Source of the DNA: an uncultured Methylibium sp.
Lineage (GTDB): Bacteria > Pseudomonadota > Gammaproteobacteria > Burkholderiales > Burkholderiaceae_C
Direction: 5' to 3'
Length of the DNA: 64,000 nt
NCBI RefSeq assembly: GCF_902826655.1
Contig: NZ_CADEFR010000004.1
Location: forward strand, 99,291 to 163,290
A model generated the notes under the pieces. The model had not been told where the DNA came from, made no database searches, and saw only the letters and a program-made list of their open reading frames with translations. The first letter of the stretch is position 1; the number at the start of each line of letters is the position of its first letter. Positions 17,037 to 46,848 of the stretch are shown here, piece after piece. The position numbers were made by a program, and so were the translations under genes.

Positions 17037-17153
17037 CAGTTCCGGGGCACATGGCCCCGGTTCTGGCGCGTCGGGCTTGCGTAAGTCGTTGATTTGACTG
17101 GCCGTGGCGTCGTCGCTCGGCGCCAAATGCCTAGATACATGGATCGCCGTGTA

Positions 17154-18630: not shown

Positions 18631-19635
18631 GTGATTCGCGACGACGACGCAGACTTTCACGCACCCGATCCGGCCCATCCGACCTGGGCGGAGACCAACT
18701 ACTTCGGCTTCTACAACGCCGAGGAGCATCTCAACGTCGGGGTGTATGCCCTGTTCCGCCCCAATCTCGGCACGGTCACGACCTCGGTCTGCATGAACTC
18801 GCGCCGCACGGTGACGCACTGGGAGGCTGACTTCTGCGACATGCGCTCCGCCGTGCCGATCCCGCAGCCGCGCAACCTGCGCGACTACGCGCTCAGCAGC
18901 GGCCTGCACGTGCGCTGCCTTGCGCCCAACCGGCAGTGGCAGATCGACTACGACGACGGCCACGGCACCCGCATCGACGTTCGCTACGAAGCGCTGATGC
19001 CGGCCTTCGACATCCACGATCCGGCGATGGACCCGATGTGCGCGTCGGCGTCTCAGGAGGGTAAGTTCGCCTGGGGCACCGCCTACAACGGGCACTTCGA
19101 TCAGACCGGCGCCTTCAAGGGCAGCGTCACGGTGCGCGGGCGCACTGTGCCGATCGATTGCGTTTCGACGATGGACCACAGCTGGGGCCCGCGCCCCGAG
19201 CGCGGCGCGCCCGCGATGAGCTGGCTGCACGCTCACTTCTCGAAGGACTTGGCGATCCACGCCATCCTCGGTTTCAATCCGGCACAGGACAACGGGCGCG
19301 AACTGTGGCTCGCGCACGGCTATGTGCTCGAGCGCGGCAAGGTCTTCGGGCTGAAGGCCGGCACCGGCCAGACGCTGCGAAAGCAGGAGCGCTATCCCGA
19401 GAGCATCGCCCTGCGACTGACCGACGGCACCAATCGCGTGTGGGAGCTGAATGGGCGCGCCGTGACCACGATGCCTTGGGTCTACGTGCCCAACAGCATC
19501 GGCTTCAACACGCTCAGCGAGTGGACCTGCGGCACGCAGCGCGGCTGGGGCGAGGTGATGGACTTCATCGAGTTGCCGGTCCTCAATACGCTCAACAGCG
19601 CCCCGGCCACGTTGCGCGCGTCCAAACCGCTTTGA
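18631..19635 (+). CDS. DUF7064-like protein, possible lipocalin-fold hydratase-type enzyme
   Basis: The 334-residue frame starts at GTG, chosen because GAGGAGAC lies 5 bases upstream; the frame is open further back but without a good start. The central motif MDHSWGPRPERG (about residues 178-189) recalls the DHSWGPR signature of the DUF7064/7065 proteins, which I remember as related in fold to CrtC carotenoid hydratases. Histidines and tryptophans around it (WLHAHF) could line a hydrophobic pocket. There is no signal peptide. A role in hydrating or dehydrating a small branched alcohol is speculation. It is the first intact gene of the catabolic block. Confidence 0.6.
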   Translation: MIRDDDADFHAPDPAHPTWAETNYFGFYNAEEHLNVGVYALFRPNLGTVTTSVCMNSRRTVTHWEADFCDMRSAVPIPQPRNLRDYALSSGLHVRCLAPNRQWQIDYDDGHGTRIDVRYEALMPAFDIHDPAMDPMCASASQEGKFAWGTAYNGHFDQTGAFKGSVTVRGRTVPIDCVSTMDHSWGPRPERGAPAMSWLHAHFSKDLAIHAILGFNPAQDNGRELWLAHGYVLERGKVFGLKAGTGQTLRKQERYPESIALRLTDGTNRVWELNGRAVTTMPWVYVPNSIGFNTLSEWTCGTQRGWGEVMDFIELPVLNTLNSAPATLRASKPL

Positions 19636-19644
19636 GGCTTCGCG

Positions 19645-19800
19645 TGCCGCCCGCCATCTTCTTCGACACAGATGACACCCTGGTGGACACGCGCGCCGCA
19701 TCGTGGAAGCTGTTCGCGCAGACGAACAGCAAGCACGGTCCGGGCGCCCCCACTCGCCTTGCATCCTCTGCCATCTTCGAGGAGAGTTTCCTCGAGTCGC
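19645..19800 (+). pseudogene. HAD-hydrolase N-terminal remnant
   Basis: Beginning at a GTG ten bases after the previous stop, the frame reads PPAIFFDTDDTLVDTRAASW. This is a clear HAD motif I (the DxDDT type with its nucleophilic aspartate) and start of the cap. After about 30 more residues the frame turns into arginine-rich shadow sequence and no later HAD motif follows. It appears to be the leftover start of a phosphatase gene. Confidence 0.55.
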
Positions 19801-20135
19801 TGACGCGGCGCTGTTCGTCGGCATCGCGCCCTGCTTTTCAAACGCGTTTTCGGGCGACTGCAGCACGGCCTACCGCGAGGACGCGCCGGGCGGGGACATC
19901 CGCGGCGCACGGCCGCGGACGCCCAGGTGATTTGGGCGCCGCGCCGCGTGACCCGGAGGCCGGCGTGAAGGCGCAGCAGCGTGGTGGGCGGGCCGGCGCC
20001 GAGCCCGTCGCCACGCGCCGCCCGCGCGACCACTCGCCGTAGCGCCGGCCCTGAAGTTAAGCCCGTGGTCGCGTGGCTACGCCGCCTAACGTGGCCAGCA
20101 AAAAACCGAAGTTCCTTCCTCAAGGAGACACGAAG
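19801..20135. other. Intergenic region before the 20136 operon
   Basis: No gene is visible. The stretch contains decayed sequence after the HAD remnant and should hold the promoter for the genes starting at 20136. I could not pick out a convincing -35/-10 pair. AAGGAG lies 10 bases before the next ATG. Confidence 0.45.
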
Positions 20136-21383
20136 ATGAAGTGCCTAGAACTGATGCCCCTCGAAGAAACCGTCAAGTGGGCCAAGCATAACTCCTGGTA
20201 CGTGGCCGACCTGTTGGCCCGCCGGGGCACAGAGGGCGTGAACCCGCTGATTCCGCGCGCGGAATACGAGATGCTGTCGTTCCAAACCACGTTCTTGCAG
20301 CACCCATGGCTGTACATGTGGCTGGGCGAGAAGGTCGGCATGGAGGGCATCCGCGCAACCTGCAGCTCCGGCCACCGGGAGTTCGGGATCAAGACGATCA
20401 CGCCGTGCAACATCCAGTGGGGCTGCGGGATTGCGCTGTTCGGCCGGCTGTTCCTGATCGACGGTGGTCTGATCGGGCCGAACGACTACACCGACAACCT
20501 GCGCATCATCTACAGTTTCTGGCGCACCGTCTTCGAGGGCTACATGCGGCAGAAGAAGCCCGCGGTCATGGACCTGGGCTATGCGCTGCAGGTGCTCGAC
20601 CAGGACGTGGTCGAAGATCTTGGCACGAAGGTGGAGTCGCTGCGCGACCCGGAACTGCGCGCCACCGTGGGCCGCTTCAACTCGCTGGCGCAGCTGATGG
20701 GCTTCCTCGACCACTACGACAACCGGCTCGGGCTGGGCGACACCGGCCCGTACGACCTCGGCGACCGCTTGATGCTGGTCCGGGACTGCTTCGTCAACGA
20801 GAAGTCATTCCCTTGGACCTACGTCGTCGGCGACCTGCCGTTCTCGTACTCGCTGGTCCTGACCTACGACAAGAAGAAGATGATGCGCGACCGCCAGAGC
20901 GGCAAGCTGAAGATGTTCTCGATCTACAACACCGGCACGCTGTTCTGCGATCCGGCCGACTACGAGGACGAGGCACTGATCGAGGCGGCAGTCTATATGC
21001 GCGACGCCGACTTCCCGAATGGCACGACCACCAGGATTCCGCTGAATGAGCTGGAGACGCACATCGAGAAGATCGAGGGCGCAGTCGAGCGGATGTACTC
21101 GTATCTCGCGATGAAGCCACATTTCGACAAGATCCTCGAAGGCAACTGGACCTATGTCGCTGCCTCGCTGCCCTACGTGCGGGCGCACGACCTCGAGGCC
21201 GAGGCCGCCTCCATGGGGTTCTGGGACATGGATCTGCGCAGCATGGAGTACCTGCTCAAGGGCTACGGCAGGGCCGGCGAAGTCCAGCGCAAGGCGACGG
21301 CCGGGCTGGGAGCGCCTCCGCCGCAGCTTCCGGGGTTCCGCTGCAGGGGAACCAAGTTCGGCAGATACGAGATCAACAACTGA
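20136..21383 (+). CDS. Unrecognised 415-residue protein of a putative phosphotransfer operon
   Basis: I do not recognise this protein. It is soluble, with no signal peptide, and rich in aromatic and acidic residues. Conserved-looking features include ATCSSGHREFGIKTITPCNIQWGC (about residues 75-98, two possible cysteine ligands), DHYDNRLGLGDTGPYDLGDR (about 199-218) and SIYNTGTLFCDP. The cluster of Cys/His could bind metal. It is followed at 36 bases by 21420 and then by a stand-alone phosphohistidine domain at 21903, each with a strong ribosome binding site. It may be the catalytic or acceptor subunit of that system; this is inference. Confidence 0.7.
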   Translation: MKCLELMPLEETVKWAKHNSWYVADLLARRGTEGVNPLIPRAEYEMLSFQTTFLQHPWLYMWLGEKVGMEGIRATCSSGHREFGIKTITPCNIQWGCGIALFGRLFLIDGGLIGPNDYTDNLRIIYSFWRTVFEGYMRQKKPAVMDLGYALQVLDQDVVEDLGTKVESLRDPELRATVGRFNSLAQLMGFLDHYDNRLGLGDTGPYDLGDRLMLVRDCFVNEKSFPWTYVVGDLPFSYSLVLTYDKKKMMRDRQSGKLKMFSIYNTGTLFCDPADYEDEALIEAAVYMRDADFPNGTTTRIPLNELETHIEKIEGAVERMYSYLAMKPHFDKILEGNWTYVAASLPYVRAHDLEAEAASMGFWDMDLRSMEYLLKGYGRAGEVQRKATAGLGAPPPQLPGFRCRGTKFGRYEINN

Positions 21384-21419
21384 CAACGCGGCGCTTCGTC
21401 GAATGGAAAGGAGCTGAAC

Positions 21420-21881
21420 ATGGCTGATATCAAAGTGAAGAAGGACGCCGAGAAGCGGTTTGCTTGGTCGCACGAGGAGTGGACCCTGAGCAAGAACTTC
21501 CAGACGGCCGACGAGTTCGAGACCTGGCTGAGCAACGAGTCGAAGTACTTCATCCGCTGCAACTCGGGCTTCTACGCCCAATGCGTGATCGTCTGCATCG
21601 AGTCCAAGGGCGACGAGTTCCTGGCTTACGTGGACGCGTACAAGGGCAAGTTCCCCCCCTGGTACACGGCCGAGGAACTGGCCGTACTCGACATCGACGA
21701 GCTGCGCAAGGAGCCGGCGAAGATCAAGTGGGACGAAGATTGGGAGTGGACGACGCTGCGCAAGACCGACTTCCCGCTGCGTCTGAAGGAAGTTGTCTTC
21801 CTCTACCCGCCTCAGGAACCCGCGATTCCGTGGCTCTTCCTCTCGCCCGAGGAAAGCGGTCTGGACAAGATGAAGATCTGA
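21420..21881 (+). CDS. Unrecognised 153-residue acidic protein
   Basis: A soluble, acidic, tryptophan-rich protein (KIKWDEDWEWTTLRKTDFP near residues 100-118) without motifs I can assign. GAAAGGAG precedes the ATG at good distance. It lies between the 415-residue protein and the phosphohistidine-domain protein, so it is probably a small subunit of the same complex. The middle IRCNSGFYAQCVIVCIESK resembles an exposed beta strand pair. Confidence 0.7.
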   Translation: MADIKVKKDAEKRFAWSHEEWTLSKNFQTADEFETWLSNESKYFIRCNSGFYAQCVIVCIESKGDEFLAYVDAYKGKFPPWYTAEELAVLDIDELRKEPAKIKWDEDWEWTTLRKTDFPLRLKEVVFLYPPQEPAIPWLFLSPEESGLDKMKI

Positions 21882-21902
21882 CTCACCACAGGAGACACTC
21901 AC

Positions 21903-22352
21903 ATGGCTAACGAGACCGAGATCGACGGTTACCGCTACATCGGACAGGGCTACAACGTGGTTCCGATCGGCCGCCACAAGGGCGTGGCGCTGAACGTGAC
22001 AGATCCGAAACAGATGATCGCGTTGATGAAGGACCCGCAGAAGATCAAAGAGACGATGGTGGTCACGCCCGGCGGCACGACGACCTTCGTCGCGCCGCTG
22101 CTGTACAAGAAGCCCGCCGGCATCATCACCTACGCCGGAACGCCCGAATCTCACCTCGGCATCGTGGGGCGCAACTTCCGCGTGCCGATCATCATGACGC
22201 TGACCCTCGAGGGGGCGGAGTCCATTCCCGACGGCACGCCGCTGCTGATGGAGTGCGACGGCAAGCTGGGCCGCGTCTATGCGAAGATGGAAGTGAAAGC
22301 GGGGGCGCAGCAAGCGCCTGCGGATCAGTCGCCCGGGTCGACGCTCGGGTAA
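21903..22352 (+). CDS. Stand-alone PEP-synthase-type phosphohistidine swivelling domain
   Basis: This 149-residue protein matches the PEP-utilising mobile domain. GIITYAGTPESHLGIVGRNF aligns with the G-I-V-T-x-x-G-G-x-x-S-H-A-A-I-V-A-R core, with H84 as the predicted phosphohistidine; the strand VPIIMTLTLEGAESIPDGT follows. In PEP synthase and pyruvate phosphate dikinase this domain shuttles phosphate between an ATP-grasp site and the acceptor site. Here it is encoded alone, with no ATP-grasp gene beside it. The dikinase homologue at 43342 could serve as its partner. Phenylphosphate synthase is a known case of such a split enzyme acting on an alcohol. Confidence 0.78.
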   Translation: MANETEIDGYRYIGQGYNVVPIGRHKGVALNVTDPKQMIALMKDPQKIKETMVVTPGGTTTFVAPLLYKKPAGIITYAGTPESHLGIVGRNFRVPIIMTLTLEGAESIPDGTPLLMECDGKLGRVYAKMEVKAGAQQAPADQSPGSTLG

Positions 22353-22452
22353 TTGCCGAATCCGGCCGGCGTCCGGTCCTGGCCGGACCGCCGCCGGAGC
22401 CCCAACGCTCGAAGGAGCGACAAGAGCGGCGCGATGCCGCCATGCGACAATC

Positions 22453-23025
22453 ATGCTTACCGAAACTGAATTCCTCGTCTTCAATGCGGTCTATTTGAAG
22501 AAGATGGTCGCTGCACCGCAGATCGTCGAAATGACGGGCATAGGGGCGGACGACGTCGCGCGCTGTCTCGAGGACGCGACGACGCGGGGTTGGGTAATGG
22601 ATATGGGCGCCGACGGCGTGATGGTGCTCGACGACGGCGCCGCTGAGGTGTTGAAGCACTACGCCGAGGCCTATGTCCAACAGCGCAAAGATCCGGCGAT
22701 GACCGCCTGGTACCACGGCTTCGAGGCGCTGAACCTGCGCTTCATCGCCGCGGTGACGCAATGGCAGGAGAGCGACGGGGACTCGACCGCCGAGCGCCGA
22801 CTGCTGCAAGCGGCCGAACGGCTGGCCAAGGACATCGCGCTGCTGATGCCGGCGATCCCCCGCTATGCGGGCTACGTCGGCCGTCTGGAGAGCAGCATGG
22901 AAAGGGTCGACTTGGGCGAACGCGACTTCGTCTGCAACCCGACCGTGGACTCGGTGCACAACGTCTGGTTCGAATTCCACGAGGACATCCTCACGGTGCT
23001 CGGGCGCAAGCGCGATACGACGTGA
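22453..23025 (+). CDS. Small winged-helix-like protein, unrecognised
   Basis: This 190-residue protein has an N-terminal part ([20 protein letters not shown], then [20 protein letters not shown]) that reads like a winged-helix DNA-binding domain, with a predicted beta wing ending in GVMVLDDG. The rest is probably alpha-helical. It could regulate the operon or bind one of its proteins. It is separated by 100 bases from the swivelling-domain gene and by 250 bases from the shell protein gene. Confidence 0.6.
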
Positions 23026-23275: not shown

Positions 23276-23554
23276 ATGACCGATGCCCTGCGCGGGGCGG
23301 CGCTGGGGCTGGTAGAGACGATCGGCAAGACTGCCGGGATGCACGCTGCCGACGCGATGGTGAAGGCGGCGAACGTGACCCTGCAGACGGCGCAGCAGCC
23401 GGGCGGCGGCATCATCACGGCGATCGTGGTGGGCGCGGTGCGCGCGGCCGGCGCGGCCGCGAAGGGTACCGTCGGAAAGGTGGGCGCCGCGCACGTGATT
23501 CCCCGCCCGCACGAAGAGGTCGAAGACATTATCGAGCGGCCCTGCGTGCGCTGA
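23276..23554 (+). CDS. Bacterial microcompartment hexameric shell protein (BMC-H)
   Basis: This 92-residue protein is a single BMC domain of standard length. [12 protein letters not shown], then [14 protein letters not shown] (with K30, the edge lysine of BMC hexamers), the pore-loop region QQPGGG (41-45) and [12 protein letters not shown] (with the conserved R77) are all canonical PduA/EutM features. The start has GGAAGGGG a few bases upstream. No BMC-P pentamer, BMC-T trimer or encapsulation-tagged enzyme is evident in the window. Either the other shell genes lie elsewhere or this protein acts without a closed compartment. The GAF-PucR regulator follows 15 bases later. Confidence 0.9.
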
Positions 23555-23569
23555 AGGACGGAGCAGTCG

Positions 23570-25882
23570 ATGCACCGGGCAAAGCGCAGCAAACACTTGG
23601 CCGTCGTGCCGCCTTCGGCTGGCGAGGCTTTGCCGGACCCTTGGCCGCACCTTGCTCCCAGCCCCGAGCCGGCCCTGCAGATCGGCGGCGCCCTGCGGGC
23701 GGTGGCCGACGCCGCGCTCGGCGGCGATCAACGGGTGAAGGAGGTGGCGGCAGCGTGCTTCGCCGCCGCGCTTGGCGGTTGCGGCGTGGCCGTGATCGAA
23801 CGGGTGGGCGCAGGTTGGTGCCGCGCCAGTGAGAATGCGTGCGGGCCGGGCGAACTCATTGCTGAGCTTCCGACGTCGGTCGCGACGTCGGGCGACATCT
23901 CCGTGCTGCCGGGTGTAGGCACCTTCGTGCCGGTGAATCCGGGGATCGGCGTCCTGGCGGATTGCCAGCTCGTCGACGCGGACCGGGCCCAGGTGCTGCG
24001 CTGCCTTGCGATCGGCTTCGAACTCGCGCTCACCGCGGCGAACCAGTATCGCGTCACGAGGGACGCGATGGAAGAGATCGACAGCCTGCAGCAGGTCGCC
24101 AGGCGCATTCTGTCCGCATCCGAACTGGACGAGGTGCTGTTCTCGATCGCGCGCGAGACGGTCCGGCTCCTTGGCGCGGACATCGGCGGGGTGTTTCTTC
24201 GAGACGGCGACGAGCTCGTGATGCGCAGTTGCGTCGGCAACGACACGCTGGACATCGATCGGCTCAGGATGAAGCGTGGACAGGGCCTTGCAGGGCGCGT
24301 TCTAGAGACCGGGCGCCCGTGCAAGGTCGACGACTACCTCGCCAGCGATCATGTCAGCCGCGACTACTTCTGGCTCGTTCGCGACGAGCAAATCCGCTGC
24401 GCGGTGGGCGCGCCGCTGCTTGCGCGAGAAGGCGTGATCGGCGTGCTCGAGGTTTGGCGCCGACGCGACGTGCCGTTCACCGATCAGGACGAGAAGCGCG
24501 TCGCCGCGCTCGCCAATCTGACGGCGATCGCGGTCCAGAATGCCCGGCTGTACGAAAGCCAGAAGGCTTCAGTGCAGCAGCTCACACAGACCAACGAGAG
24601 TCTGCGCCAGCAGCACGAGGTCGTGCGTGTGTCGGCACAACTCCAGGACGACGTCATCGGCGCCCTACTGGACGGCGGCGGCATCACGGCGATCGCGCGG
24701 ATCGTCGCCCGCCGTGCCGGTGTGGAGGTCGCGATCCTGGGGACCGATCTCGGGGTAATGGCTGCCTATCCGGCGCAGGTCTCGAACGGCGACTGGCTCG
24801 AGCGGGTGGAGACCGCCGTGCGGCAGTTCCCCGGGTACGCCAACAACACCAGCGTGACCTCCCGAGAGCGCGATGGCTGGCTCTCGCTGCGTCCGATCGT
24901 TGCTGGCGGGGACCGGATTGGCTGGGTATGCATGCGCTCGAACAGTGAGCCGGCCGAGATGCAAGAAGCCGCGAGCCGTCAAGGAGCGGTCGCTAGCGCG
25001 CTGTATTGCCTTGAGCAGCGTGCTGCAAGCGTCGCCCGGGCATCCGCGCTCGGCGCGTTGATGTGGGACTTGCTGGAGGGCACGCCGCCGGTCAGGCAAT
25101 CCGCGCTCGAGCGTTTGGCGGAGTTCCACATCGACCTGAGGGGTCCGCACCGCGTCGTCCATTGCACCATCGAGGGCCTGGCCGAGACGGCGCGCGGCGA
25201 GGGTTGGAACATGGACACGGTGCAGCGCAAGCAGCGCGACGTGCGAGATGCGAGCGAGCGAGCGCTGAGCGCTGCGGGACTGAAGTTGGCGTCCTCCCGT
25301 GGCGATCTGATCGTGGCGATCATCCCAGCGCTGGACGCCGCGCAGGTGACGCGGCAGCTCAAGTCGCTGAACGAGGAGATCCTGGCGAGGGACAAGGTCA
25401 GAACGTTCTGGGGCGTCAGCGCTCCATTCGATTCGCCGTCGCAGCTGTCGAACGCCAACCAGGAGGCCAAGTGTGCCGCGCTGGCCGTTGGGAAGCTGGG
25501 CACGGCGCAGAGCCCGGTGGTAATTCACGAGCATCTGGGCGTGCTGACGTTGTTATTGAATGGTGGCGGTATTGCCGAGGGGCACGACCTTCGCAAGTAC
25601 GTCGACCGCATGCTGGGCCCGATGCTCAAGTACGACTCCGCGCACCATGGCGTCCTGGCGAAGACGATCCGGTCCTATCTGGACAACGATTGTTCACTGA
25701 AGCTGACGGCGCTGCAGCTTTTCGTCCACGAGAAGACCGTCCGCTACCGTCTCGCCCAGTTCGAGGAGCTGACGGGCGTCGACTTGCGCCGCCACCGCGA
25801 ACGGATGTCGGTCGACCTAGCGTTGCTGATGCACGACTTCGCGACCCGGTCGGCCGGCGTAGCAGGCAAAGGGGCGGGCTGA
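23570..25882 (+). CDS. GAF-domain PucR/CdaR-type transcriptional regulator
   Basis: This 770-residue protein has an N-terminal region of unknown type (1-150), a GAF domain at about 170-330 (SELDEVLFSIARETVRLLGA through FTDQDEKRVAALANLTAIAVQNARLY), and a middle region resembling the PucR regulatory module. The C-terminus carries the PucR helix-turn-helix (LFVHEKTVRYRLAQFEELTG, about 715-734). The GAF domain probably senses a small pathway molecule. It is co-oriented with the shell protein gene at a 15-base distance and may control the 20136-23554 genes or the oxygenase genes. Confidence 0.85.
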   Translation: MHRAKRSKHLAVVPPSAGEALPDPWPHLAPSPEPALQIGGALRAVADAALGGDQRVKEVAAACFAAALGGCGVAVIERVGAGWCRASENACGPGELIAELPTSVATSGDISVLPGVGTFVPVNPGIGVLADCQLVDADRAQVLRCLAIGFELALTAANQYRVTRDAMEEIDSLQQVARRILSASELDEVLFSIARETVRLLGADIGGVFLRDGDELVMRSCVGNDTLDIDRLRMKRGQGLAGRVLETGRPCKVDDYLASDHVSRDYFWLVRDEQIRCAVGAPLLAREGVIGVLEVWRRRDVPFTDQDEKRVAALANLTAIAVQNARLYESQKASVQQLTQTNESLRQQHEVVRVSAQLQDDVIGALLDGGGITAIARIVARRAGVEVAILGTDLGVMAAYPAQVSNGDWLERVETAVRQFPGYANNTSVTSRERDGWLSLRPIVAGGDRIGWVCMRSNSEPAEMQEAASRQGAVASALYCLEQRAASVARASALGALMWDLLEGTPPVRQSALERLAEFHIDLRGPHRVVHCTIEGLAETARGEGWNMDTVQRKQRDVRDASERALSAAGLKLASSRGDLIVAIIPALDAAQVTRQLKSLNEEILARDKVRTFWGVSAPFDSPSQLSNANQEAKCAALAVGKLGTAQSPVVIHEHLGVLTLLLNGGGIAEGHDLRKYVDRMLGPMLKYDSAHHGVLAKTIRSYLDNDCSLKLTALQLFVHEKTVRYRLAQFEELTGVDLRRHRERMSVDLALLMHDFATRSAGVAGKGAG

Positions 25883-26747: not shown

Positions 26748-27158
26748 ATGGACCAAACCCCGATTCGCGTTCTTCTCGCCAAAGTCGGCCTCGACGGCCA
26801 TGACCGAGGCGTCAAGGTCGTCGCTCGCGCGCTGCGCGACGCCGGCATGGACGTCATCTACTCCGGCCTTCATCGCACGCCCGAAGAGGTGGTCAACACC
26901 GCCATCCAGGAGGACGTGGACGTGCTGGGTGTGAGCCTCCTGTCCGGCGTGCAGCTCACGGTTTTCCCCAAGATCTTCAAGCTCCTGGACGAGAGAGGCG
27001 CTGGCGACTTGATCGTGATCGCCGGTGGCGTGATGCCGGACGAGGACGCCGCAGCCATCCGCAAACTGGGCGTGCGCGAGGTGCTCCTGCAGGACACGCC
27101 CCCGCAGGCCATCATCGACTCGATCCGCTCCTTGGTCGCCGCGCGCGGCGCCCGCTGA
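26748..27158 (+). CDS. hcmB: 2-Hydroxyisobutyryl-CoA mutase small, B12-binding subunit HcmB
   Basis: This 136-residue protein is a stand-alone cobalamin-binding domain. The D-x-H-x-x-G motif is D16-x-H18-x-x-G21, with H18 as lower axial ligand; SLLSG and GGVMPDED complete the B12 pocket. The start gives the exact length I recall for HcmB of Aquincola tertiaricarbonis. The split small/large subunit arrangement is that of the isobutyryl-CoA mutase group. It opens a ten-gene operon whose next members are the ligase, chaperone and large subunit of the same enzyme. Confidence 0.92.
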   Translation: MDQTPIRVLLAKVGLDGHDRGVKVVARALRDAGMDVIYSGLHRTPEEVVNTAIQEDVDVLGVSLLSGVQLTVFPKIFKLLDERGAGDLIVIAGGVMPDEDAAAIRKLGVREVLLQDTPPQAIIDSIRSLVAARGAR

Positions 27159-27173
27159 CCTTGGAGGCGCACC

Positions 27174-28607
27174 ATGGAAGAGTGGAACTTTCCGGTCGAG
27201 TATGACGAGAACTACTTGCCGCCGGCCGACAGCCGGTACTGGTTTCCGCGACGCGAAACGATGCCGGCGGCGGAGCGTGACAAGGCCATCCTCGGTCGCC
27301 TCCAGCAGGTGTGCCAGTACGCATGGGACACCTCGCCGTTCTACCGGCGCAAGTGGGAGGAAGCCAACTTCCACCCCAGCCAACTGAAGTCGTTGGAGGA
27401 CTTCGAGACGCGCGTGCCGGTGATCAAGAAGACGGATCTTCGCGAATCGCAGGCCGCCCACCCGCCGTTTGGCGACTACGTGTGCGTGCCCGATTCCGAA
27501 ATCTTCCACGTCCACGGAACCAGCGGCACCACCGGGCGCCCGACCGCTTTCGGCATCGGTCGGGCCGACTGGCGCGCCATCGCCAACGCGCACGCCCGGA
27601 TCATGTGGGGCATGGGCATCCGCACGGGCGACCTGGTCTGCGTCGCAGCCGTTTTCAGCCTCTATATGGGTAGCTGGGGTGCACTGGCCGGCGCGGAGCG
27701 GTTGCGCGCCAAGGCCTTTCCCTTCGGCGCCGGCGCGCCAGGCATGAGTGCCCGCCTGGTGCAATGGCTCGACACCATGAAGCCGGCGGCCTTCTACGGC
27801 ACGCCAAGCTACGCGATCCATCTCGCTGAGGTAGCGCGCGAGGAGAAGCTGAATCCGCGCGACTTCGGACTGAAGTGCCTGTTCTTCAGCGGCGAGCCGG
27901 GCGCTTCGGTGCCTGGCGTCAAGGACCGTATCGAGGAGGCTTATGGCGCCAAGGTCTACGACTGCGGTTCGATGGCCGAGATGTCCCCTTTCATGAACGT
28001 CGCCGGCACCGAACAGAGCAACGACGGCATGCTGTGCTGGCAGGACATCATCTACACCGAGGTCTGTGACCCGGCCAATATGCGGCGCGTGCCCTACGGC
28101 CAGCGCGGCACGCCAGTGTACACCCACCTGGAGCGCACCAGCCAGCCGATGATCCGGCTGCTCTCGGGCGACCTCACGCTATGGACGAACGACGAGAATC
28201 CCTGCGGCCGCACCTATCCCCGGCTGCCGCAAGGAATCTTTGGCCGCATCGACGACATGTTCACCATACGCGGCGAGAACATCTACCCGAGCGAGATCGA
28301 CGCAGCACTCAACCAGATGTCGGGCTACGGCGGTGAGCACCGGATCGTCATCACGCGCGAGTCGGCGATGGACGAGCTCTTGCTGCGCGTCGAACCCAGC
28401 GAGAGCGTTCACGCGGCGGGGGCTGCTGCGCTGGAGACGTTCCGCGCAGAAGCATCGCACCGTGTTCAGACCGTGCTCGGCGTTCGTGCCAAGGTGGAAC
28501 TGGTCGCGCCGAACTCGATCGCACGCACCGACTTCAAGGCGCGGCGCGTGATCGACGACCGCGAAGTGTTCCGGGCGCTGAACCAGCAATTGCAATCGAG
28601 CGCCTGA
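27174..28607 (+). CDS. hcl: 2-Hydroxyisobutyrate-CoA ligase (phenylacetate-CoA ligase-like)
   Basis: This 477-residue AMP-forming ligase belongs to the phenylacetate-CoA ligase branch. The ATP-binding loop HGTSGTTGRPT lies near residues 114-124, and DCGSMAEMSPF near 263-273 gives the adenine-binding segment. GRIDDMFTIRGENIYPSEID near 358-377 is the hinge and C-terminal core. Its position between the two mutase subunit genes points to 2-hydroxyisobutyrate as substrate, as reported for the homologous locus in Aquincola. TTGGAGG precedes the ATG. Confidence 0.88.
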   Translation: MEEWNFPVEYDENYLPPADSRYWFPRRETMPAAERDKAILGRLQQVCQYAWDTSPFYRRKWEEANFHPSQLKSLEDFETRVPVIKKTDLRESQAAHPPFGDYVCVPDSEIFHVHGTSGTTGRPTAFGIGRADWRAIANAHARIMWGMGIRTGDLVCVAAVFSLYMGSWGALAGAERLRAKAFPFGAGAPGMSARLVQWLDTMKPAAFYGTPSYAIHLAEVAREEKLNPRDFGLKCLFFSGEPGASVPGVKDRIEEAYGAKVYDCGSMAEMSPFMNVAGTEQSNDGMLCWQDIIYTEVCDPANMRRVPYGQRGTPVYTHLERTSQPMIRLLSGDLTLWTNDENPCGRTYPRLPQGIFGRIDDMFTIRGENIYPSEIDAALNQMSGYGGEHRIVITRESAMDELLLRVEPSESVHAAGAAALETFRAEASHRVQTVLGVRAKVELVAPNSIARTDFKARRVIDDREVFRALNQQLQSSA

Positions 28608-28623
28608 GCAGGCAGGGACTGGA

Positions 28624-29607
28624 ATGACCTACGTTCCCTCATTCGCCCTGCTCGAGCAGCTCAGAGCCGGCAACACCTGGGCGCTTGGCCGCCTGATCTC
28701 GCGCGCCGAGGCCGGTGTGGCCGAGGCGCGGCCGGCATTGGCCGAGGTCTATCGGCACGCCGGCTCGGCGCATGTGATCGGTCTCACCGGGGTGCCGGGG
28801 AGTGGCAAGTCGACTCTCGTGGCGAAGCTCACGGCCGCCCTGCGCGAGCGTGGTGAGAAGGTCGGCATCGTCGCGATCGATCCGTCGAGCCCGTACTCGG
28901 GTGGCGCCATCCTGGGCGATCGCATCCGAATGACCGAACTCGCCAACGATCTCGGCGTATTCATCCGCAGTATGGCCACCCGCGGCGCGACGGGGGGCAT
29001 GGCACGCGCTGCCCTCGACGCCGTGGACCTGCTGGATGTCGCCGGCTACCGCACCATCATCCTGGAAACCGTCGGAGTCGGTCAGGACGAAGTGGAGGTG
29101 GCGCATGCGTCGGACACGACGGTCGTCGTATCGGCGCCGGGCCTTGGCGACGAGATCCAGGCCATCAAAGCCGGCGTGCTGGAGATCGCCGACATCCACG
29201 TTGTCAGCAAGTGCGACCGCGACGACGCGAATCGCACGCTCACCGATCTCAAGCAGATGCTGACGCTCGGCACCATGGTCGGGCCCAAGCGCGCATGGGC
29301 GATCCCGGTCGTGGGTGTCAGTTCGTACACAGGCGAAGGCGTCGACGACCTGCTCGGTCGCATCGCCGCCCACCGACAGGCGACGTCCGACACCGAACTC
29401 GGCCGCGAACGGCGCCGTCGCGTAGCCGAATTCCGCCTTCAGAAGACCGCCGAGACGCTGCTCCTGGAGCGTTTCGCCACCGGAGCGCAGCCCTTCTCGC
29501 GTGCGCTCGCAGACAGCCTCAGCAACCGTGCATCGGATCCCTACACCGCAGCACGCGAACTCATCGCCCGAACGATCCGCAAGGAGTACTCGAATGACCT
29601 GGCTTGA
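28624..29607 (+). CDS. meaB: MeaB-family G-protein chaperone of the mutase
   Basis: This 327-residue GTPase has the G1 loop GVPGSGKST at residues 56-64, DPSSPYSGGAILGDRIRM, ETVGVGQDEVEV and SKCDRDDANR (a divergent NKxD). MeaB/ArgK proteins gate delivery of adenosylcobalamin to acyl-CoA mutases and eject damaged cofactor. Its final codons overlap hcmA by 14 bases, so it is co-translated with the large subunit. Distinguishing it from a generic ArgK rests on this context. Confidence 0.93.
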   Translation: MTYVPSFALLEQLRAGNTWALGRLISRAEAGVAEARPALAEVYRHAGSAHVIGLTGVPGSGKSTLVAKLTAALRERGEKVGIVAIDPSSPYSGGAILGDRIRMTELANDLGVFIRSMATRGATGGMARAALDAVDLLDVAGYRTIILETVGVGQDEVEVAHASDTTVVVSAPGLGDEIQAIKAGVLEIADIHVVSKCDRDDANRTLTDLKQMLTLGTMVGPKRAWAIPVVGVSSYTGEGVDDLLGRIAAHRQATSDTELGRERRRRVAEFRLQKTAETLLLERFATGAQPFSRALADSLSNRASDPYTAARELIARTIRKEYSNDLA

Positions 29608-31282
29608 GCCGCAGAAAATGTCCCAACTTCAATCGGAGCGCAAGGACTGGGAAGCGAACGAAGTCGGCGCCTTCTTGAAGAAGGCGCCCGAGCGCAAGGA
29701 GCAGTTCCACACGATCGGGGACTTCCCGGTCAAGCGCACCTACACCGCTGCCGACATCGCCGACACGCCGCTGGAGGATATCGGCCTTCCGGGGCGCTAC
29801 CCGTTCACGCGCGGTCCCTACCCGACGATGTACCGCAGCCGCAACTGGACCATGCGCCAGATCGCTGGCTTCGGCACCGGCGAGGACACCAACAAGCGCT
29901 TCAAGTACCTCATCGAGCAGGGCCAGACCGGCATTTCGACGGACTTCGACATGCCCACGCTGATGGGCTACGACTCCGACCACCCGATGAGTGACGGCGA
30001 GGTCGGCCGCGAGGGCGTCGCGATCGACACGCTGGCTGACATGGAGGCCTTGCTCGCCGACATCGATCTCGAGAGGATCTCGGTGTCTCTGACGATCAAC
30101 CCGACGGCCTGGATCCTGCTCGCGATGTACGTTGCGCTCGGCGAGAAGCGCGGCTACGACCTGAACAGACTCTCGGGCACGGTGCAGGCCGACATTCTCA
30201 AGGAGTACATGGCGCAGAAGGAGTACATCTACCCGATCGCGCCTTCGGTGCGCATCGTGCGCGACATCATCACTTACGGCGCCAAGAACCTGAAGCGTTA
30301 CAACCCGATCAACATCTCGGGCTACCACGTCAGCGAGGCCGGCTCCTCGCCGCTTCAGGAGGCGGCGTTCACACTGGCCAACCTGATCACTTACGTGAAC
30401 GAGGTGACGAAGACCGGCATGCACGTCGATGAGTTCGCGCCGCGCCTGGCCTTCTTCTTCGTGTCGCAAGGCGACTTCTTCGAGGAGGTCGCGAAGTTCC
30501 GCGCCCTGCGCCGCTGCTACGCAAAGATCATGAAGGAGCGCTTCGGCGCGAAAAATCCGGAATCGATGCGGCTGCGCTTCCACTGCCAGACCGCGGCAGC
30601 GACGCTGACCAAGCCGCAGTACATGGTCAACGTCGTGCGCACGTCGCTGCAGGCGCTGTCGGCGGTGCTCGGCGGCGCCCAGTCACTGCACACCAACGGC
30701 TACGACGAAGCCTTCGCGATACCGACCGAGGACGCGATGAAGATGGCGCTGCGCACGCAGCAGATCATCGCCGAAGAGAGCGGCGTCGCCGACGTGATCG
30801 ACCCGCTGGGCGGCAGCTACTACGTCGAGGCGCTGACCACTGAGTACGAGAAGAAGATCTTCGAGATCCTCGACGAGGTGGAAAAGCGCGGCGGCGCCAT
30901 CAAGCTGATCGAACAGGGCTGGTTCCAGAAGCAGATTGCCGACTTCGCCTACGAGACGGCACTGCGCAAGCAGTCGGGTCAGAAACCGGTGATCGGGGTG
31001 AACCGGTTCGTCGAGGAGGAGAAGGACGTCAAGATCGAGATCCACCCGTACGACAACACGACCGCCGAGCGCCAGATTTCCCGCACGCGCCGCGTTCGCG
31101 CCGAGCGCGACGAGGCCAAGGTGCAAGCGATGCTCGACCAACTGGTGGCTGTCGCGAAGGACGAGTCCCAGAACCTGATGCCGCTGACCATCGAACTGGT
31201 GAAGGCCGGCGCCACGATGGGGGACATCGTCGAGAAGCTGAAGGGGATCTGGGGTACCTACCGTGAGACGCCGGTCTTCTGA
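29594..31282 (+). CDS. hcmA: 2-Hydroxyisobutyryl-CoA mutase large subunit HcmA
   Basis: This 562-residue protein is the substrate-binding TIM-barrel subunit of an acyl-CoA mutase ([39 protein letters not shown]). Residue 90 is isoleucine and residue 117 is aspartate, the pair that defines 2-hydroxyisobutyryl-CoA mutase; methylmalonyl-CoA and isobutyryl-CoA mutases carry other residues there. It converts 2-hydroxyisobutyryl-CoA to 3-hydroxybutyryl-CoA using the adenosylcobalamin held by HcmB. The start MTWLEP lies inside meaB. Sequence and length look nearly identical to what I recall of the Aquincola enzyme. Confidence 0.95.
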
Positions 31283-38728: not shown

Positions 38729-39790
38729 TCAAAGATCCAGGACCAGCGTCGCGCCCTTCGAGCGCGACACGCAGGTGGTCAGGAACTGCGTGCGTGCCTC
38801 GGCGGACAGCAAGTAATCCCGATGCTCGACGTCGCCCGCGAGATAGCGGACCTTGCACGTACCGCACAGGCCGCTCTGGCATGATGTCGGTACTTCGATG
38901 CCGTGCTCGCCAAGCACCTGCGCGATCGACTTGTCGTTCGGTACCGTCAGGACCGTTCCCGTGCTGGCGATCTTGATCTGGAACCCGAGCGCCAGCGCAT
39001 CGCTGCCGATGTCGTGGGGGACTCCCTCGGCGGGAAGCACCGGCGCGCCGACGAAGTACTCGAAGTGCACCGCCTCGGCGGGCCAATTGGTGCAGGCACG
39101 TGCGCAGGCCTCCATGAACCCGGGGGGGCCGCAGTAGTAGAGCTGCCAACCCGGCTCGTACCGCCGCAGCAGCGCCGCGATGTCCAGGCCCTTGGCCGGA
39201 TTGCCGCCGTCGAAGTGCATGATCACGCGCCCCTTGGCGGCCAGCGGCGCGAGTTCCTCCTGGAACGCCGCGTGGGCGCTCGACTTCGCGCAGTAGTGCA
39301 GGGTGTAGTCCGCGCCTATCCTTTCCAACCGATGCACCATGGCCTTCAGCGGCGTGATGCCGATGCCGCCGGCCAGCAGGATCTGGTGGGGCGCCCCCTC
39401 AATCAGCGGGAAGTTGTTGCGCGGGTGTCCGACCGCGACGAGTCGTTGCGTGTGCACACGCTCGTGGATCGCGATCGACCCCCCGCGCCCGTTGTCCTCG
39501 CGCAGCACCGCGATCAGGTACCGCCGACGCTCGGCGGGATCGTTGCACAGCGAATACTGTCGTACGCGTCCGTCGCGAAAGTACAGATCCACGTGGGCCC
39601 CGGCGGTGAACTCCTCCAGTTCGCCGCCGTCCTCGCGCACGAATTCGTAGGCGTTGATGCCGATCCCCTGGTAAGTGATCTGCCGGACCCGCAGGTTCAA
39701 CGCCGTCTTCGGGTACTTGCCGGTGTGACTCAACTGGTACATGTCGCTCTCGGCCCCGGCCTGCGCCGTCGGTTCAGCGGATGCCGGCAC
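38729..39790 (-). CDS. mdpK: MdpK-like oxygenase reductase (FMN, NAD, [2Fe-2S])
   Basis: This 353-residue protein has a flavin domain (RQYSLCNDPAERRRY, about 70-84), an NAD domain (LLAGGIGITPLKAMVHRL) and a C-terminal plant-type ferredoxin domain. The ferredoxin domain has cysteines in CQSGLCGTCKVRY and LTTCVSRSKG. This is the phthalate dioxygenase reductase/VanB layout, delivering electrons to a Rieske oxygenase. The frame starts at GTG 39790; an ATG at 39742 (MYQLSHTG) is an equally good alternative. It follows the oxygenase gene by 38 bases. Confidence 0.88.
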   Translation of the reverse strand: MPASAEPTAQAGAESDMYQLSHTGKYPKTALNLRVRQITYQGIGINAYEFVREDGGELEEFTAGAHVDLYFRDGRVRQYSLCNDPAERRRYLIAVLREDNGRGGSIAIHERVHTQRLVAVGHPRNNFPLIEGAPHQILLAGGIGITPLKAMVHRLERIGADYTLHYCAKSSAHAAFQEELAPLAAKGRVIMHFDGGNPAKGLDIAALLRRYEPGWQLYYCGPPGFMEACARACTNWPAEAVHFEYFVGAPVLPAEGVPHDIGSDALALGFQIKIASTGTVLTVPNDKSIAQVLGEHGIEVPTSCQSGLCGTCKVRYLAGDVEHRDYLLSAEARTQFLTTCVSRSKGATLVLDL

Positions 39791-39828
39791 CGCTCCGGGG
39801 TCGAGCCAGGGGTTGCGCGGGGCGTCGA

Positions 39829-41241
39829 TCAGAGGCTCGCTTCGATCTCATCGAGGCGCCGCAGGATGTGCGGCTTGCGCTGCTCGAGCGGCAGTTCGTC
39901 GCACTCCTTCATGATCGCAAAGACTTGGTGCGCCGCCTTGCGGATGACGTCACTGTCCGCTTCTCGGCTCGTGCGGCGACGGATCCGCAGCCGGCTGTCT
40001 GAGGTGTATCTCGGCAGCGTTTGCCCGCCACCCACTTCGGCCTTCACGCGCACCGGGTCGGGCGGCGCCTTGCCGGCCGCCGCGTCGCGAAGCAGCGAGC
40101 GGCACATGTACACGCCCACGTCCGATCGGCCGGGATGCTCAAGGCCGTGGATGGCTATCGGCCCCTGGCTGACGATGGCTTCGTAGTCGCCCGGAACCCG
40201 CTGCGTCTCTTCATAAGGCCGATGCCGAGTCTGACCGATCAGGAAGTCGATCTTGTCGACCCCACACTCATCTACCTTTCCCCGGTGCTCCGGGTCAACC
40301 TCATCGTTGAAGTGGCGCCAGCCGAAGGCGATCGAGTGCTCATCGTCGACCGGCACCTGCCAACGCGACATCGCCGGGCCGGAGTGTCGCTGCGGCGCCG
40401 CCGCCACGATGGCGGCGTTCTGCATCCAGTTCGGCAGGCCCATCTGCGAGATTCGGATCCACACTTCGTCGTCCGACAGGCGCCGGCCGGCGGTGAAGAT
40501 CATGCCGTTGTTGTCGTTGGTCGGGTGCCAGTCGATGATTGGCATCTCGCCGAAGCCCCCCTGCAGCGTCGCGCCGTCGGCCAGCTTCGAGTCCACGCCG
40601 GCGACCGTCATGTTGTTGTGCAGCAGCGCGGTGTGGTAGTGGTCGATCTGGTTTTCGTAGACCTGAAGCCAGTTGCAGTCGAAGACATTGGAGAACGGAA
40701 TCAACCGCGTTCCCTTCGGCAACACGTAGCCGTCGAACACCGGGAACTCCGGTCTGCGATCCGCCGGCCCCATGTAGGCGAACACCAGGCCGTCGCGCTC
40801 GAAGGCCGGATAGGCGCCCTGGCAGACGGTGTCCTTCAGCTTGGTGTCGGGGGGTTCCGCCGGCGCCTCCAGCAGTTTGCCGTCGACGTCGAAGTGCCAA
40901 CCGTGGTAGCAGCAGCGGATCCCGCGTTCCTGCACGATGCCGAACTCGAGCGAGGCCCCGCGGTGGGCGCACTTGCGGTGCAGCACGCCGACGTTGCCCT
41001 GGCGGTCCCTGAATGCCACCAGATCCTCGTGCAGGATCCGAATCGCCTTGGGCACGTCGGTCAGTTCCTGCGACAGGCATACGGGCTGCCAGTAGCGGCG
41101 CATGTACTCGCCCATCGGCGTGCCGGGGCCCGTACGAAGGATTTCCAGGTTCGTGGGGGCGGCATTCTGCAGGTCGCGCAGCTGGTACCCGCTGTAGGCC
41201 ATCCCCTGCCCGGCCGCGGCCAAACTTTCAATCTTACCCAT
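39829..41241 (-). CDS. mdpJ: MdpJ-like Rieske non-heme iron oxygenase (tert-butyl alcohol hydroxylase)
   Basis: This 470-residue oxygenase has the Rieske ligands C91, H93, C110 and H113 (KCAHRG and CCYHGW) and the mononuclear iron site in ENQIDHYHTALLHN (bridging D200, ligands H201 and H208). It looks very close to MdpJ of Methylibium petroleiphilum and Aquincola as I remember them, including length. MdpJ hydroxylates tert-butyl alcohol to 2-methyl-1,2-propanediol and desaturates tert-amyl alcohol. The start at 41241 has GAGGAG eight bases upstream, and the longer TTG frame is rejected. Substrate assignment is by similarity. Confidence 0.85.
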   Translation of the reverse strand: MGKIESLAAAGQGMAYSGYQLRDLQNAAPTNLEILRTGPGTPMGEYMRRYWQPVCLSQELTDVPKAIRILHEDLVAFRDRQGNVGVLHRKCAHRGASLEFGIVQERGIRCCYHGWHFDVDGKLLEAPAEPPDTKLKDTVCQGAYPAFERDGLVFAYMGPADRRPEFPVFDGYVLPKGTRLIPFSNVFDCNWLQVYENQIDHYHTALLHNNMTVAGVDSKLADGATLQGGFGEMPIIDWHPTNDNNGMIFTAGRRLSDDEVWIRISQMGLPNWMQNAAIVAAAPQRHSGPAMSRWQVPVDDEHSIAFGWRHFNDEVDPEHRGKVDECGVDKIDFLIGQTRHRPYEETQRVPGDYEAIVSQGPIAIHGLEHPGRSDVGVYMCRSLLRDAAAGKAPPDPVRVKAEVGGGQTLPRYTSDSRLRIRRRTSREADSDVIRKAAHQVFAIMKECDELPLEQRKPHILRRLDEIEASL

Positions 41242-46826: not shown

Positions 46827-46848
46827 CGCAGCGCCGGTTGCACATGGC

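What the first reader, a model, noticed from the sequence alone, without database searches (positions are those of the whole stretch)
20136..23025. Putative split phosphotransferase: stand-alone phosphohistidine domain with unknown partner proteins
The 149-residue product at 21903 is a PEP-synthase-type swivelling domain with H84, encoded with a 415-residue and a 153-residue protein I cannot assign. A free swivelling domain needs a separate ATP- or PEP-binding partner and an acceptor enzyme. Phenylphosphate synthase sets a precedent for such a split enzyme that phosphorylates an alcohol. In this locus a tertiary or allylic alcohol is a reasonable acceptor.
Basis: inference. Interest (0 to 1): 0.85.

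Follow-up and report, generated by a model that had tools for sequence, protein, structure and literature searches.

The report
Multi-part kinase for branched alcohols
Genes in a gasoline-additive-degrading cluster, filed as unknown proteins, a regulator and a pyruvate enzyme, probably form one multi-part enzyme that uses ATP to put phosphate on a small branched alcohol, which may be an unexplained step in breaking such alcohols down.

Summary
In detail: 20136-23025 encodes four co-oriented genes: a 415-aa and a 153-aa protein matching no family, a 149-aa phosphohistidine domain with H84, and a 190-aa protein. A likely ATP partner is in the window: the PPDK-like protein at 43342-45921 keeps its ATP-grasp and its own phosphohistidine domain but its pyruvate/PEP half is degenerate; 4 of 16 relatives compared lack that half. 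Phosphohistidine domain and 415-type protein are adjacent or fused in all 24 loci laid out. In R. opacus, domain, 415-type and 190-type proteins are one polypeptide, so the '190-aa MarR regulator' is probably an enzyme part. The 415 family shows no sequence relation to a rifampin-phosphotransferase-like kinase. The kinase travels with phosphatases, a DUF7064 protein, dehydrogenases, CoA ligases and often a microcompartment; once with a methylcrotonyl-CoA-carboxylase-like set. Best reading: a twin-swivel, multi-component ATP-dependent dikinase for a branched (tertiary or allylic) alcohol, perhaps 2-methyl-3-buten-2-ol. Enzyme type fairly well supported; substrate inferred. The window's subtype also tracks with 2-hydroxyisobutyryl-CoA mutase, so tert-butanol or its diol remain open. 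Structure prediction failed.

The parts
20136..21383 (+). 415-aa protein (K415): proposed acceptor-alcohol-binding component
   Evidence: No family match. Fused to a swivel domain in R. opacus pROB02 and R. pyridinivorans pA. Y44, R104, F190, R197, G204, P205, R216, W227, P273, Y340 invariant in 24 of 24 aligned sequences.
21420..21881 (+). 153-aa protein (K153): subtype-specific accessory component, role unknown
   Evidence: 72-97% identical in the other type-1 loci, present in all 12; no similarity to the R. oxybenzonivorans 206-aa protein or the R. opacus fusion; structure prediction poor (pLDDT 49.1).
21903..22352 (+). 149-aa free phosphohistidine (swivel) domain; H84 codon at 22152-22154
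   Evidence: PF00391 E 1.1e-5; H84 in 20 of 20 aligned swivels.
22453..23025 (+). 190-aa protein (K190), annotated as MarR regulator in PM1 but proposed enzyme component
   Evidence: Aligns with the C-terminal part of the R. opacus 793-aa fusion; next to the swivel/415 pair in several distant loci.
43342..45921 (+). 859-aa PPDK-like protein: proposed ATP-binding, phosphoryl-donating component with its own swivel (H452 codon 44695-44697) and a degenerate C-terminal barrel
   Evidence: PPDK_N 3.6e-46, PEP-utilizers 2.3e-21, C-terminal domain 20.5 bits below its 22.8 cut-off; retains 119/159, 34/46 and 38/145 of the columns invariant in three PPDKs taken as housekeeping for ATP-grasp, swivel and barrel.
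18631..19635 (+). DUF7065/DUF7064 protein (start inferred from the length of the PM1 gene; searches used 18523-19632): candidate isomerase/lyase acting on the phosphorylated alcohol
   Evidence: Pfam matches; in the same run as this kinase type in Paraburkholderia; next to or one gene from genes annotated as phosphotransferase family in 4 of 4 annotated distant loci.
19650..20040 (+). probable decayed remnant of a HAD phosphatase gene that is intact at this place in relatives
   Evidence: Reading of the frames; a 306-aa HAD homologue at this place in L075 18143-19063.
23276..23554 (+). BMC-domain microcompartment shell protein
   Evidence: PF00936 E 2.1e-16.
23570..25882 (+). PucR/GAF-type regulator
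   Evidence: Pfam.
26748..31282 (+). hcmB, hcl, meaH, hcmA: 2-hydroxyisobutyryl-CoA ligase/mutase set
   Evidence: Pfam/NCBIfam for the B12-binding, ligase and mutase proteins; PM1 annotation of the same order; WTMRQIAGF motif.
38729..41259 (-). Rieske oxygenase (MdpJ-like) and its reductase
   Evidence: Pfam; PM1 has the same pair at the same place, presumably Mpe_B0555/B0554 (tags not matched in a call).
41782..43319 (+). Ldh_2-family dehydrogenase and HIT-family protein, upstream of the PPDK-like gene
   Evidence: Pfam.
45933..47481 (+). HIBADH-like dehydrogenase and histidine-phosphatase-superfamily protein, downstream of the PPDK-like gene
   Evidence: Pfam; His-phosphatases also near the trio in L008 and L010.

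Best explanation
The trio plus the 190-aa protein and the PPDK-like protein form one multi-component, ATP-dependent small-molecule dikinase. Proposed working: the PPDK-like protein binds ATP in its ATP-grasp domain and phosphorylates a swivel histidine (its own H452, H84 of the free swivel, or first one and then the other); the free swivel carries the phosphate to the 415-aa protein, which holds a small alcohol; the alcohol leaves as a phosphate ester. The phosphate is then used in a 'phosphorylate, rearrange, dephosphorylate, oxidise' pathway in which a DUF7064 protein probably rearranges or eliminates the ester and a HAD, histidine-type or tyrosine-type phosphatase releases the product for alcohol and aldehyde dehydrogenases and a CoA ligase. 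In this cluster the likeliest acceptors are branched tertiary or allylic alcohols of the fuel-oxygenate pathways, with 2-methyl-3-buten-2-ol (from tert-amyl alcohol) ahead of tert-butanol or 2-methylpropane-1,2-diol. Shown by sequence: the components, their linkage, the fusions, the invariant histidines, the degeneration of the pyruvate/PEP half. Inferred: complex formation, direction of phosphate flow, substrate, roles of DUF7064 and the 153-aa protein. My odds: multi-component alcohol-type dikinase about 0.75; tertiary or allylic alcohol class about 0.5; 2-methyl-3-buten-2-ol specifically about 0.3.
For: Four genes together in 12 of 12 type-1 loci. Swivel and 415-type adjacent or fused in 24 of 24 loci laid out. 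Fusions: R. opacus 793 aa = swivel + 415-type + 190-type; R. pyridinivorans 577 aa = swivel + 415-type. PPDK-like gene on the same contig within 25 kb in 8 of 12 type-1 loci and a match in 10 of 10 genomes, partial in one; in the same gene run in R. oxybenzonivorans, Paraburkholderia, G075 and G405, about 7 kb away in R. opacus. PPDK-like keeps 119/159 ATP-grasp and 34/46 swivel columns but 38/145 barrel columns; the CGEHGG motif and the terminal Cys region are not seen in any of the 12 full-length ones aligned; 4 of 16 have no barrel. Neighbours are catabolic: alcohol/aldehyde dehydrogenases, ligases, phosphatases, oxygenases. Product clue: the R. oxybenzonivorans cluster adds a carboxylase whose relatives sit with isovaleryl-CoA dehydrogenase (2 of 3 loci inspected) and HMG-CoA lyase (1 of 3). 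Working precedent: HpeHI (PMC12167813; abstract, structure and discussion sections read).
Against: No activity, structure or expression data. AlphaFold2 failed for the 415-aa protein (pLDDT 31.7) and was poor for the 153-aa one (49.1). The PPDK-like gene is about 20 kb away in the window and PM1; in 4 of 12 type-1 loci it is not on the same contig (in L007's genome only partial matches); no PPDK-like gene was found near L106 (19 kb) or in the 16 kb around the R. pyridinivorans pairs. Two swivel domains in one enzyme has no counterpart in the precedents read. The carboxylase clue comes from one locus of type 2, not the window's type 1, and its family-model matches are mostly unspecific and mostly below cut-off. 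[quoted passage not shown] no close MdpJ relative was found in 4 of 10 genomes with the trio.
Confidence: 0.65

Rival explanations
1. Same kinase, other substrate: it phosphorylates tert-butanol, 2-methylpropane-1,2-diol or another compound on the way to 2-hydroxyisobutyrate, not an allylic alcohol.
For: HcmA orthologues at 63% identity or more in 8 of 10 trio genomes, with the WTMRQIAGF motif in 5 of 5 checked, window included (that this Ile marks the mutase is recalled). In P. sulfidoxydans, without a close MdpJ, a diiron-like protein (weak DUF455 match), a Rieske-domain protein and a NuoF-like reductase stand beside HcmA, Ldh_2 and the PPDK-like gene.
Against: The route from tert-butanol to 2-hydroxyisobutyryl-CoA, in the passages of PMC7176365 that I saw, mentions no phosphorylation. 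G402 has trio and MdpJ but no close HcmA (completeness not given).
Confidence: 0.35
2. The phosphate comes from PEP, or the PPDK-like protein is an ordinary pyruvate phosphate dikinase for gluconeogenesis, unrelated to the trio.
For: It is annotated as pyruvate, phosphate dikinase in PM1 and Rhodococcus. Weak PEP-synthase matches run on into its C-terminal half (to residues 683 and 828).
Against: Barrel columns reduced to 38/145; motif and terminal Cys region lost; four relatives beside kinase genes or in the same genome lack the barrel.
Confidence: 0.07
3. A regulatory phosphorelay: the free swivel and the 190-aa protein sense and signal, like a PTS branch.
For: The 190-aa protein has weak, below-cut-off winged-helix-like matches and is annotated MarR in PM1.
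Against: In R. opacus it is one chain with swivel and 415-type protein; all residues invariant in the nine aligned sequences lie at position 90 or later, outside the weak matches at 2-76; a PucR regulator is already present.
Confidence: 0.08
4. An orthodox two-component phenolic kinase of the PpsAB/CreHI/HpeHI family acting on an aromatic alcohol.
For: Same logic of separate ATP and swivel/acceptor parts; in G075 a related set stands beside a biotin carrier and carboxyltransferase genes, as HpeHI stands beside a biotin-dependent carboxylase.
Against: The 415-type profile shows no relation to an RPH/HpeH-like protein (probability 0.1%) against 100% for a true relative; the donor is PPDK-type, while the paper says that an ATP-site motif of the phenolic kinases resembles PEP synthase more than PPDK; I saw no aromatic-degradation genes beside the trio in the window.
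Confidence: 0.08

Closest known systems
HpeHI / CreHI / PpsAB two-component small-molecule dikinases (HpeHI: PMC12167813)
   Same: ATP-grasp partner separate from the swivel/acceptor part; conserved swivel His; catabolic operons; phosphatase and sometimes biotin carboxylase nearby.
   Different: Here the acceptor protein is a different family by sequence (tested on a proxy), the swivel is a free protein (or N-terminal in fusions), the donor is PPDK-type with a second swivel, and there are extra 190-aa and 153-aa parts.
Rifampin phosphotransferase (RPH)
   Same: ATP-grasp, His swivel and acceptor modules.
   Different: Single chain; the 415 family matches no chain of the PDB set, which holds RPH.
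Pyruvate phosphate dikinase
   Same: Donor protein keeps ATP-grasp and swivel of this family (E about 4e-126 over residues 9-559).
   Different: C-terminal pyruvate/PEP half degenerate or missing.
Linalool isomerase / linalool dehydratase-isomerase
   Same: Would perform the analogous tertiary-to-primary allylic alcohol conversion, if the 2-methyl-3-buten-2-ol reading is right.
   Different: The known enzymes convert linalool to geraniol, with no phosphate ester mentioned in the passage seen (PMC4791888); here the route would run through a phosphate ester.
Bacterial microcompartment metabolosomes
   Same: BMC-H, BMC-P, BMC-T, EutJ-like and acylating-type aldehyde dehydrogenase genes beside the kinase.
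   Different: I recognised none of the usual signature enzymes in these loci; the kinase/DUF7064/HAD set stands in that place. 'dikinase' and 'kinase' do not occur in the main text of the catalog paper PMC8217296 (word search; supplements not read).

Membership tests
His-swivel dikinase (general kind) | phosphohistidine swivel domain with invariant His | tested here: met
   H84 in 20 of 20; PF00391.
His-swivel dikinase (general kind) | linked ATP-grasp partner with conserved nucleotide-binding domain | tested here: met
   PPDK_N 3.6e-46; 119/159 columns kept; same contig within 25 kb in 8 of 12 type-1 loci. Physical partnership not shown.
His-swivel dikinase (general kind) | ATP-dependent phosphorylation of a small molecule | not testable with these tools
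   Needs protein and assay.
PpsA/CreH/HpeH family | acceptor domain homologous to HpeH/RPH acceptor domain | tested here: not met
   hhalign of A7 with an RPH-like protein of P. sulfidoxydans (identified by its match to RPH residues 569-865): probability 0.1%; positive control 100%; no PDB hits. Proxy, as HpeH itself was not at hand; folds not compared.
PpsA/CreH/HpeH family | swivel at the C-terminus of the acceptor chain | tested here: not met
   Free swivel here; N-terminal in the R. opacus and R. pyridinivorans fusions.
Pyruvate phosphate dikinase (for the 859-aa protein) | ATP-grasp and swivel domains | tested here: met
Pyruvate phosphate dikinase (for the 859-aa protein) | pyruvate/PEP barrel with CGEHGG motif and terminal catalytic Cys region | tested here: not met
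   38/145 columns; motif and Cys region absent (the Cys region is visible in 2 of the 3 reference PPDKs, the third has an odd end). That the Cys is catalytic is recalled.
MarR regulator (for the 190-aa protein) | MarR/winged-helix family match above cut-off | tested here: not met
   MarR_2 13.1 bits, cut-off 27.
Linalool-isomerase-type hydroxyl mutase | isomerisation of a tertiary allylic alcohol | not testable with these tools
   Substrate inferred only.

The most novel reading that the evidence does not exclude
A phosphorylation-driven isomerisation of tertiary allylic alcohols: the twin-swivel dikinase makes 2-methyl-3-buten-2-yl phosphate, the DUF7064 protein (a CrtC/AttH-like fold, recalled) moves the phosphate to the primary carbon, a phosphatase releases prenol, and an alcohol dehydrogenase with an acylating aldehyde dehydrogenase, in a microcompartment or not, makes 3-methylcrotonyl-CoA. 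This would be the missing step of tert-amyl alcohol and methylbutenol degradation and a new kind of microcompartment entry reaction.
Probability: 0.28. Interest if true: 0.92.

Novelty: new variant of a known kind. Interest (0 to 1): 0.74.

Why it matters
If right, it adds a second branch of small-molecule dikinases, unrelated in its acceptor part by sequence, with two swivel domains and a repurposed PPDK, inside a well-studied pollutant-degradation cluster (Methylibium petroleiphilum PM1), where its parts are annotated as hypothetical proteins, a PEP-utilizing enzyme, a MarR regulator and pyruvate, phosphate dikinase. It offers a concrete candidate for an enzyme that a 2016 paper calls uncharacterised, the conversion of 2-methyl-3-buten-2-ol to prenol in PM1 and Aquincola (PMC4791888, passage), and a possible genomic signature (kinase + DUF7064 + phosphatase) for activating unreactive alcohols.

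Tried and rejected
Structure prediction: the 415-aa model (11 rows, 85-98% identical) reached pLDDT 31.7 and the 153-aa model (8 rows) 49.1; both discarded, no fold search run. Sequence search against the PDB: nothing credible for the 415 family, the 153 family (best E 0.88), the 190-aa protein or DUF7064 (best E 0.17). Anti-phage defence (PADLOC): no match at E<=0.01 for the four proteins. PEP-dependent donor and housekeeping PPDK: rejected on the state of the barrel. PpsA/HpeH membership: acceptor-domain test on a proxy not met. Promoter/terminator scan of 19560-23600: nothing found. The isobutylene ibc clusters (PMC13188929, word search and passages: 'dikinase' and 'phospho' not found in the main text) and the Hpe pathway (PMC9618137, passages) were looked at as alternatives. 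A PRK08296 (NF006149) search in five genomes matched only swivel regions in most rows, none over the cut-off. Literature: searches listed no paper that I recognised as describing this enzyme set; several lists were capped (10 to 15 shown of 33, 54 and 5,424) and most subscription journals are not held, so this does not show it is unpublished. The two key papers on tert-amyl alcohol and alkene formation are not held. That MdpJ-bearing strains form alkenes from tertiary alcohols is known to me only from a title in a reference list and recall.

Counts and dropped rows: the 24 loci are 12 type-1 (window, PM1, L002-L011) and 12 others (L013, L014, L015, L019, L101, L102 counted as two, L103, L104, L105, L106, L122). 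A 190-type protein was found in 12 of 12 type-1 loci and 6 of the 12 others; of the other six, L101, L103, L104 and L105 lie on short contigs or at a contig end, L102 (second set) has none of its own, and L122 was not tested for it. The L106 row was cut from the wrong frame and corrected. In the distant DUF7064 set six records were fetched (H74, H75, H76, H77, H79, H80); two (H75, H79) had no annotation and were not counted; 'phosphotransferase family' there is the record's wording, not domain-tested. In one search four close relatives show one TGA inside the 859-residue match; PM1's protein is 843 aa. Gene calls in unannotated loci come from a simple codon-bias script of mine or a GC3-based one and may have wrong starts. 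The DUF7064 query used an arbitrary start (18523).
Full report
What is there. The four genes at 20136-23025 are real and co-oriented. The 149-aa product is a phosphohistidine domain (PF00391, E 1.1e-5) with the GTPESHLG motif at H84. The 415- and 153-aa proteins match no Pfam or NCBIfam model at E<=1. The own genome has one match to the 149-aa protein. I read the window as a fuel-oxygenate cluster: 2-hydroxyisobutyryl-CoA ligase/mutase genes (26748-31282), MdpJ-like Rieske oxygenase and reductase (38729-41259), Ldh_2, HIT, PPDK-like, HIBADH-like and histidine-phosphatase genes (41782-47481). The Methylibium petroleiphilum PM1 plasmid carries the same set (415-aa protein 97.6% identical), and a draft-genome paper lists Mpe_B0555 as tert-butyl alcohol hydroxylase and Mpe_B0538/B0541 as the mutase of PM1 (PMC4517660, passages).

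Relatives. A scan of genome contigs found 10 loci at 85-98% identity in Burkholderiales, a Steroidobacter bin, a deltaproteobacterial bin, Pseudonocardia sulfidoxydans and two other actinobacterial bins. All 10, like the window and PM1, carry the 415, 153, 149 and 190 genes together ('type 1'). The family is rare in the samples searched: 2 of 399 genomes of the order (own included), 1 of 398 of the phylum (own only), 6 of 396 of the Pseudonocardia phylum (two of them already known). The 415-aa protein is the most conserved part: 86-88% identity to L006, L008 and L011, where the mutase has 62-76%, the swivel 71-79% and the PPDK-like protein 53-70% in the same genomes, with dN far below dS.

Distant versions. 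Plasmid searches and genome searches gave 12 further loci at about 18-32% identity. In all 24 loci laid out, a swivel domain is next to or fused with the 415-type protein. The 793-aa 'PEP-utilizing enzyme' of R. opacus pROB02 is swivel (residues about 14-150), 415-type (223-543) and 190-type (about 593-793) in one chain; R. pyridinivorans has a 577-aa swivel+415 fusion. A 190-type protein is adjacent or fused in 12 of 12 type-1 loci and 6 of the 12 others; four of the remaining six lie on short contigs or at a contig end. So the '190-aa MarR regulator' is most simply an enzyme part.

The donor. A PPDK-like gene lies on the same contig within 25 kb in 8 of 12 type-1 loci (window, PM1, L002, L004, L005, L006, L010, L011) and on other contigs of the genome for the rest, only as partial matches for L007. 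It is in the same gene run as the kinase in R. oxybenzonivorans, Paraburkholderia PGU19, G075 and G405 and about 7 kb away in R. opacus; none was found near L106 or L122. Against three PPDKs taken as housekeeping, the window protein keeps 119 of 159 invariant columns in the ATP-grasp domain, 34 of 46 in the swivel and 38 of 145 in the barrel; over the 12 full-length PPDK-like proteins the barrel figure is 28-41 of 145, and 4 of 16 proteins have no barrel. The CGEHGG motif and the terminal cysteine region are gone. It should still bind ATP and carry phosphate on H452, but probably cannot make or use PEP. PDB sequences agree: the best PPDK matches stop near residue 559 (one at 601), though weak PEP-synthase matches run on to 683 and 828, as a degenerate barrel would give.

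How it would work. Published precedents are HpeHI, CreHI and PpsAB, in which an ATP-grasp protein phosphorylates a swivel His on a second protein that then phosphorylates a small molecule (PMC12167813, abstract, structure and discussion sections). The same logic fits here with two twists: a free swivel, and a donor that carries its own swivel, so a His-to-His relay is possible. The acceptor family is new by sequence: its profile (14 rows, A7) gives probability 0.1% against a protein that matches rifampin phosphotransferase over residues 569-865, beyond the swivel alone, 100% against the R. pyridinivorans relative, and no PDB hit up to E=10. Ten residues, among them R104, R197 and R216, are invariant in 24 sequences. 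Structure prediction failed, so the fold is open.

What it is for. In G401 one contiguous stretch reads: Ldh_1-type gene, BMC-T, EutJ-like, aldehyde dehydrogenase, BMC-H, BMC-P, DUF7064, HAD, 415, 153, 149, 190, BMC-H, PucR, a phosphatase (tyrosine-type by the PM1 annotation), MdpK, MdpJ, Ldh_2, HIT, PPDK-like, HIBADH, histidine phosphatase, HcmB, HCL, MeaH, HcmA. Paraburkholderia PGU19 has DUF7064, HAD, swivel, 415, 190, PPDK-like, alcohol dehydrogenase, aldehyde dehydrogenase and, by eye, an AMP-ligase gene, with no microcompartment gene seen in the 17 kb. R. oxybenzonivorans pRB98 combines the kinase, a full microcompartment locus and a biotin-dependent carboxylase plus MaoC. Family models do not tell which carboxylase it is; relatives of its carboxyltransferase sit next to isovaleryl-CoA dehydrogenase in 2 of 3 loci inspected, one of them also with HMG-CoA lyase, although other hits are annotated propionyl-CoA carboxylase. 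The best models for the own genome's microcompartment aldehyde dehydrogenase are acylating ones, below their cut-offs. Together these fit an allylic C5 alcohol going to 3-methylcrotonyl-CoA. DUF7064 proteins also stand next to (3) or one gene from (1) a gene annotated as phosphotransferase family, which I take for an unrelated APH-type kinase, in 4 of 4 annotated distant loci; this suggests that they act on phosphorylated alcohols.

Limits of the substrate claim. The product clue is from 'type 2' (R. oxybenzonivorans, Paraburkholderia). Just upstream of the window the own genome has a microcompartment locus whose type-2 415 gene is decayed (profile match to residues 4-43 only; a swivel remnant is seen by eye) while its PPDK-like gene is open over 844 residues; PM1 has the same locus with a 104-aa hypothetical gene at that place, which I take for the same remnant. 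In L004-L006 the type-1 genes sit with DUF7064 and the microcompartment genes, so type 1 may have replaced type 2. But P. sulfidoxydans carries both, and type 1 co-occurs with HcmA in 8 of 10 genomes and with a close MdpJ in 6 of 10; in P. sulfidoxydans an apparent other oxygenase stands in. A role on tert-butanol or its diol therefore stays open.

Verdict. A real, conserved, multi-part kinase system whose likely ATP partner and one further component were missed or misnamed; new variant of the small-molecule dikinases; substrate unproven.

Noticed in passing
G000:C4 80000-99290 (L020), just upstream of the window: Microcompartment locus (PucR, Zn-ADH, Ldh_1, BMC-T, EutJ-like, acylating-type AldDH, BMC-H, BMC-P, DUF7064, HAD, PPDK-like, BMC-H) in which the kinase's own 415-type gene, and by eye its swivel gene, are decayed; the PM1 plasmid has the same locus with a 104-aa hypothetical gene at that place.
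   Followed up: partly
L116, L118, L119, L121: DUF7064 proteins adjacent to, or one gene from, genes annotated as phosphotransferase family, twice with P450s and alcohol dehydrogenases nearby: perhaps a second, independent kinase-plus-DUF7064 pathway.
   Followed up: partly
L019 (G075:C5) and L102 (G405:C72): A third version of the kinase: in L019 beside a biotin carrier and carboxyltransferase-like genes, in L102 beside what looks like the start of a similar small gene at the contig end; recalls the Hpe pathway.
   Followed up: no
L081 5390-7981: In P. sulfidoxydans a weakly DUF455-like (ferritin-like) protein, a Rieske-domain protein and a NuoF-like reductase next to HcmA and near the PPDK-like gene: candidate alternative hydroxylase for a tertiary carbon.
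   Followed up: no
window 19650-20040: Decayed HAD phosphatase remnant between DUF7064 and the 415-aa gene.
   Followed up: partly
window 16591-18300: Fragments that look like transposase genes (reading of the ORFs only) upstream of the DUF7064 gene.
   Followed up: no
window 15051-16169: 372-aa probable membrane protein without a family match that also occurs near the cluster in L003, L004 (split) and L006.
   Followed up: no
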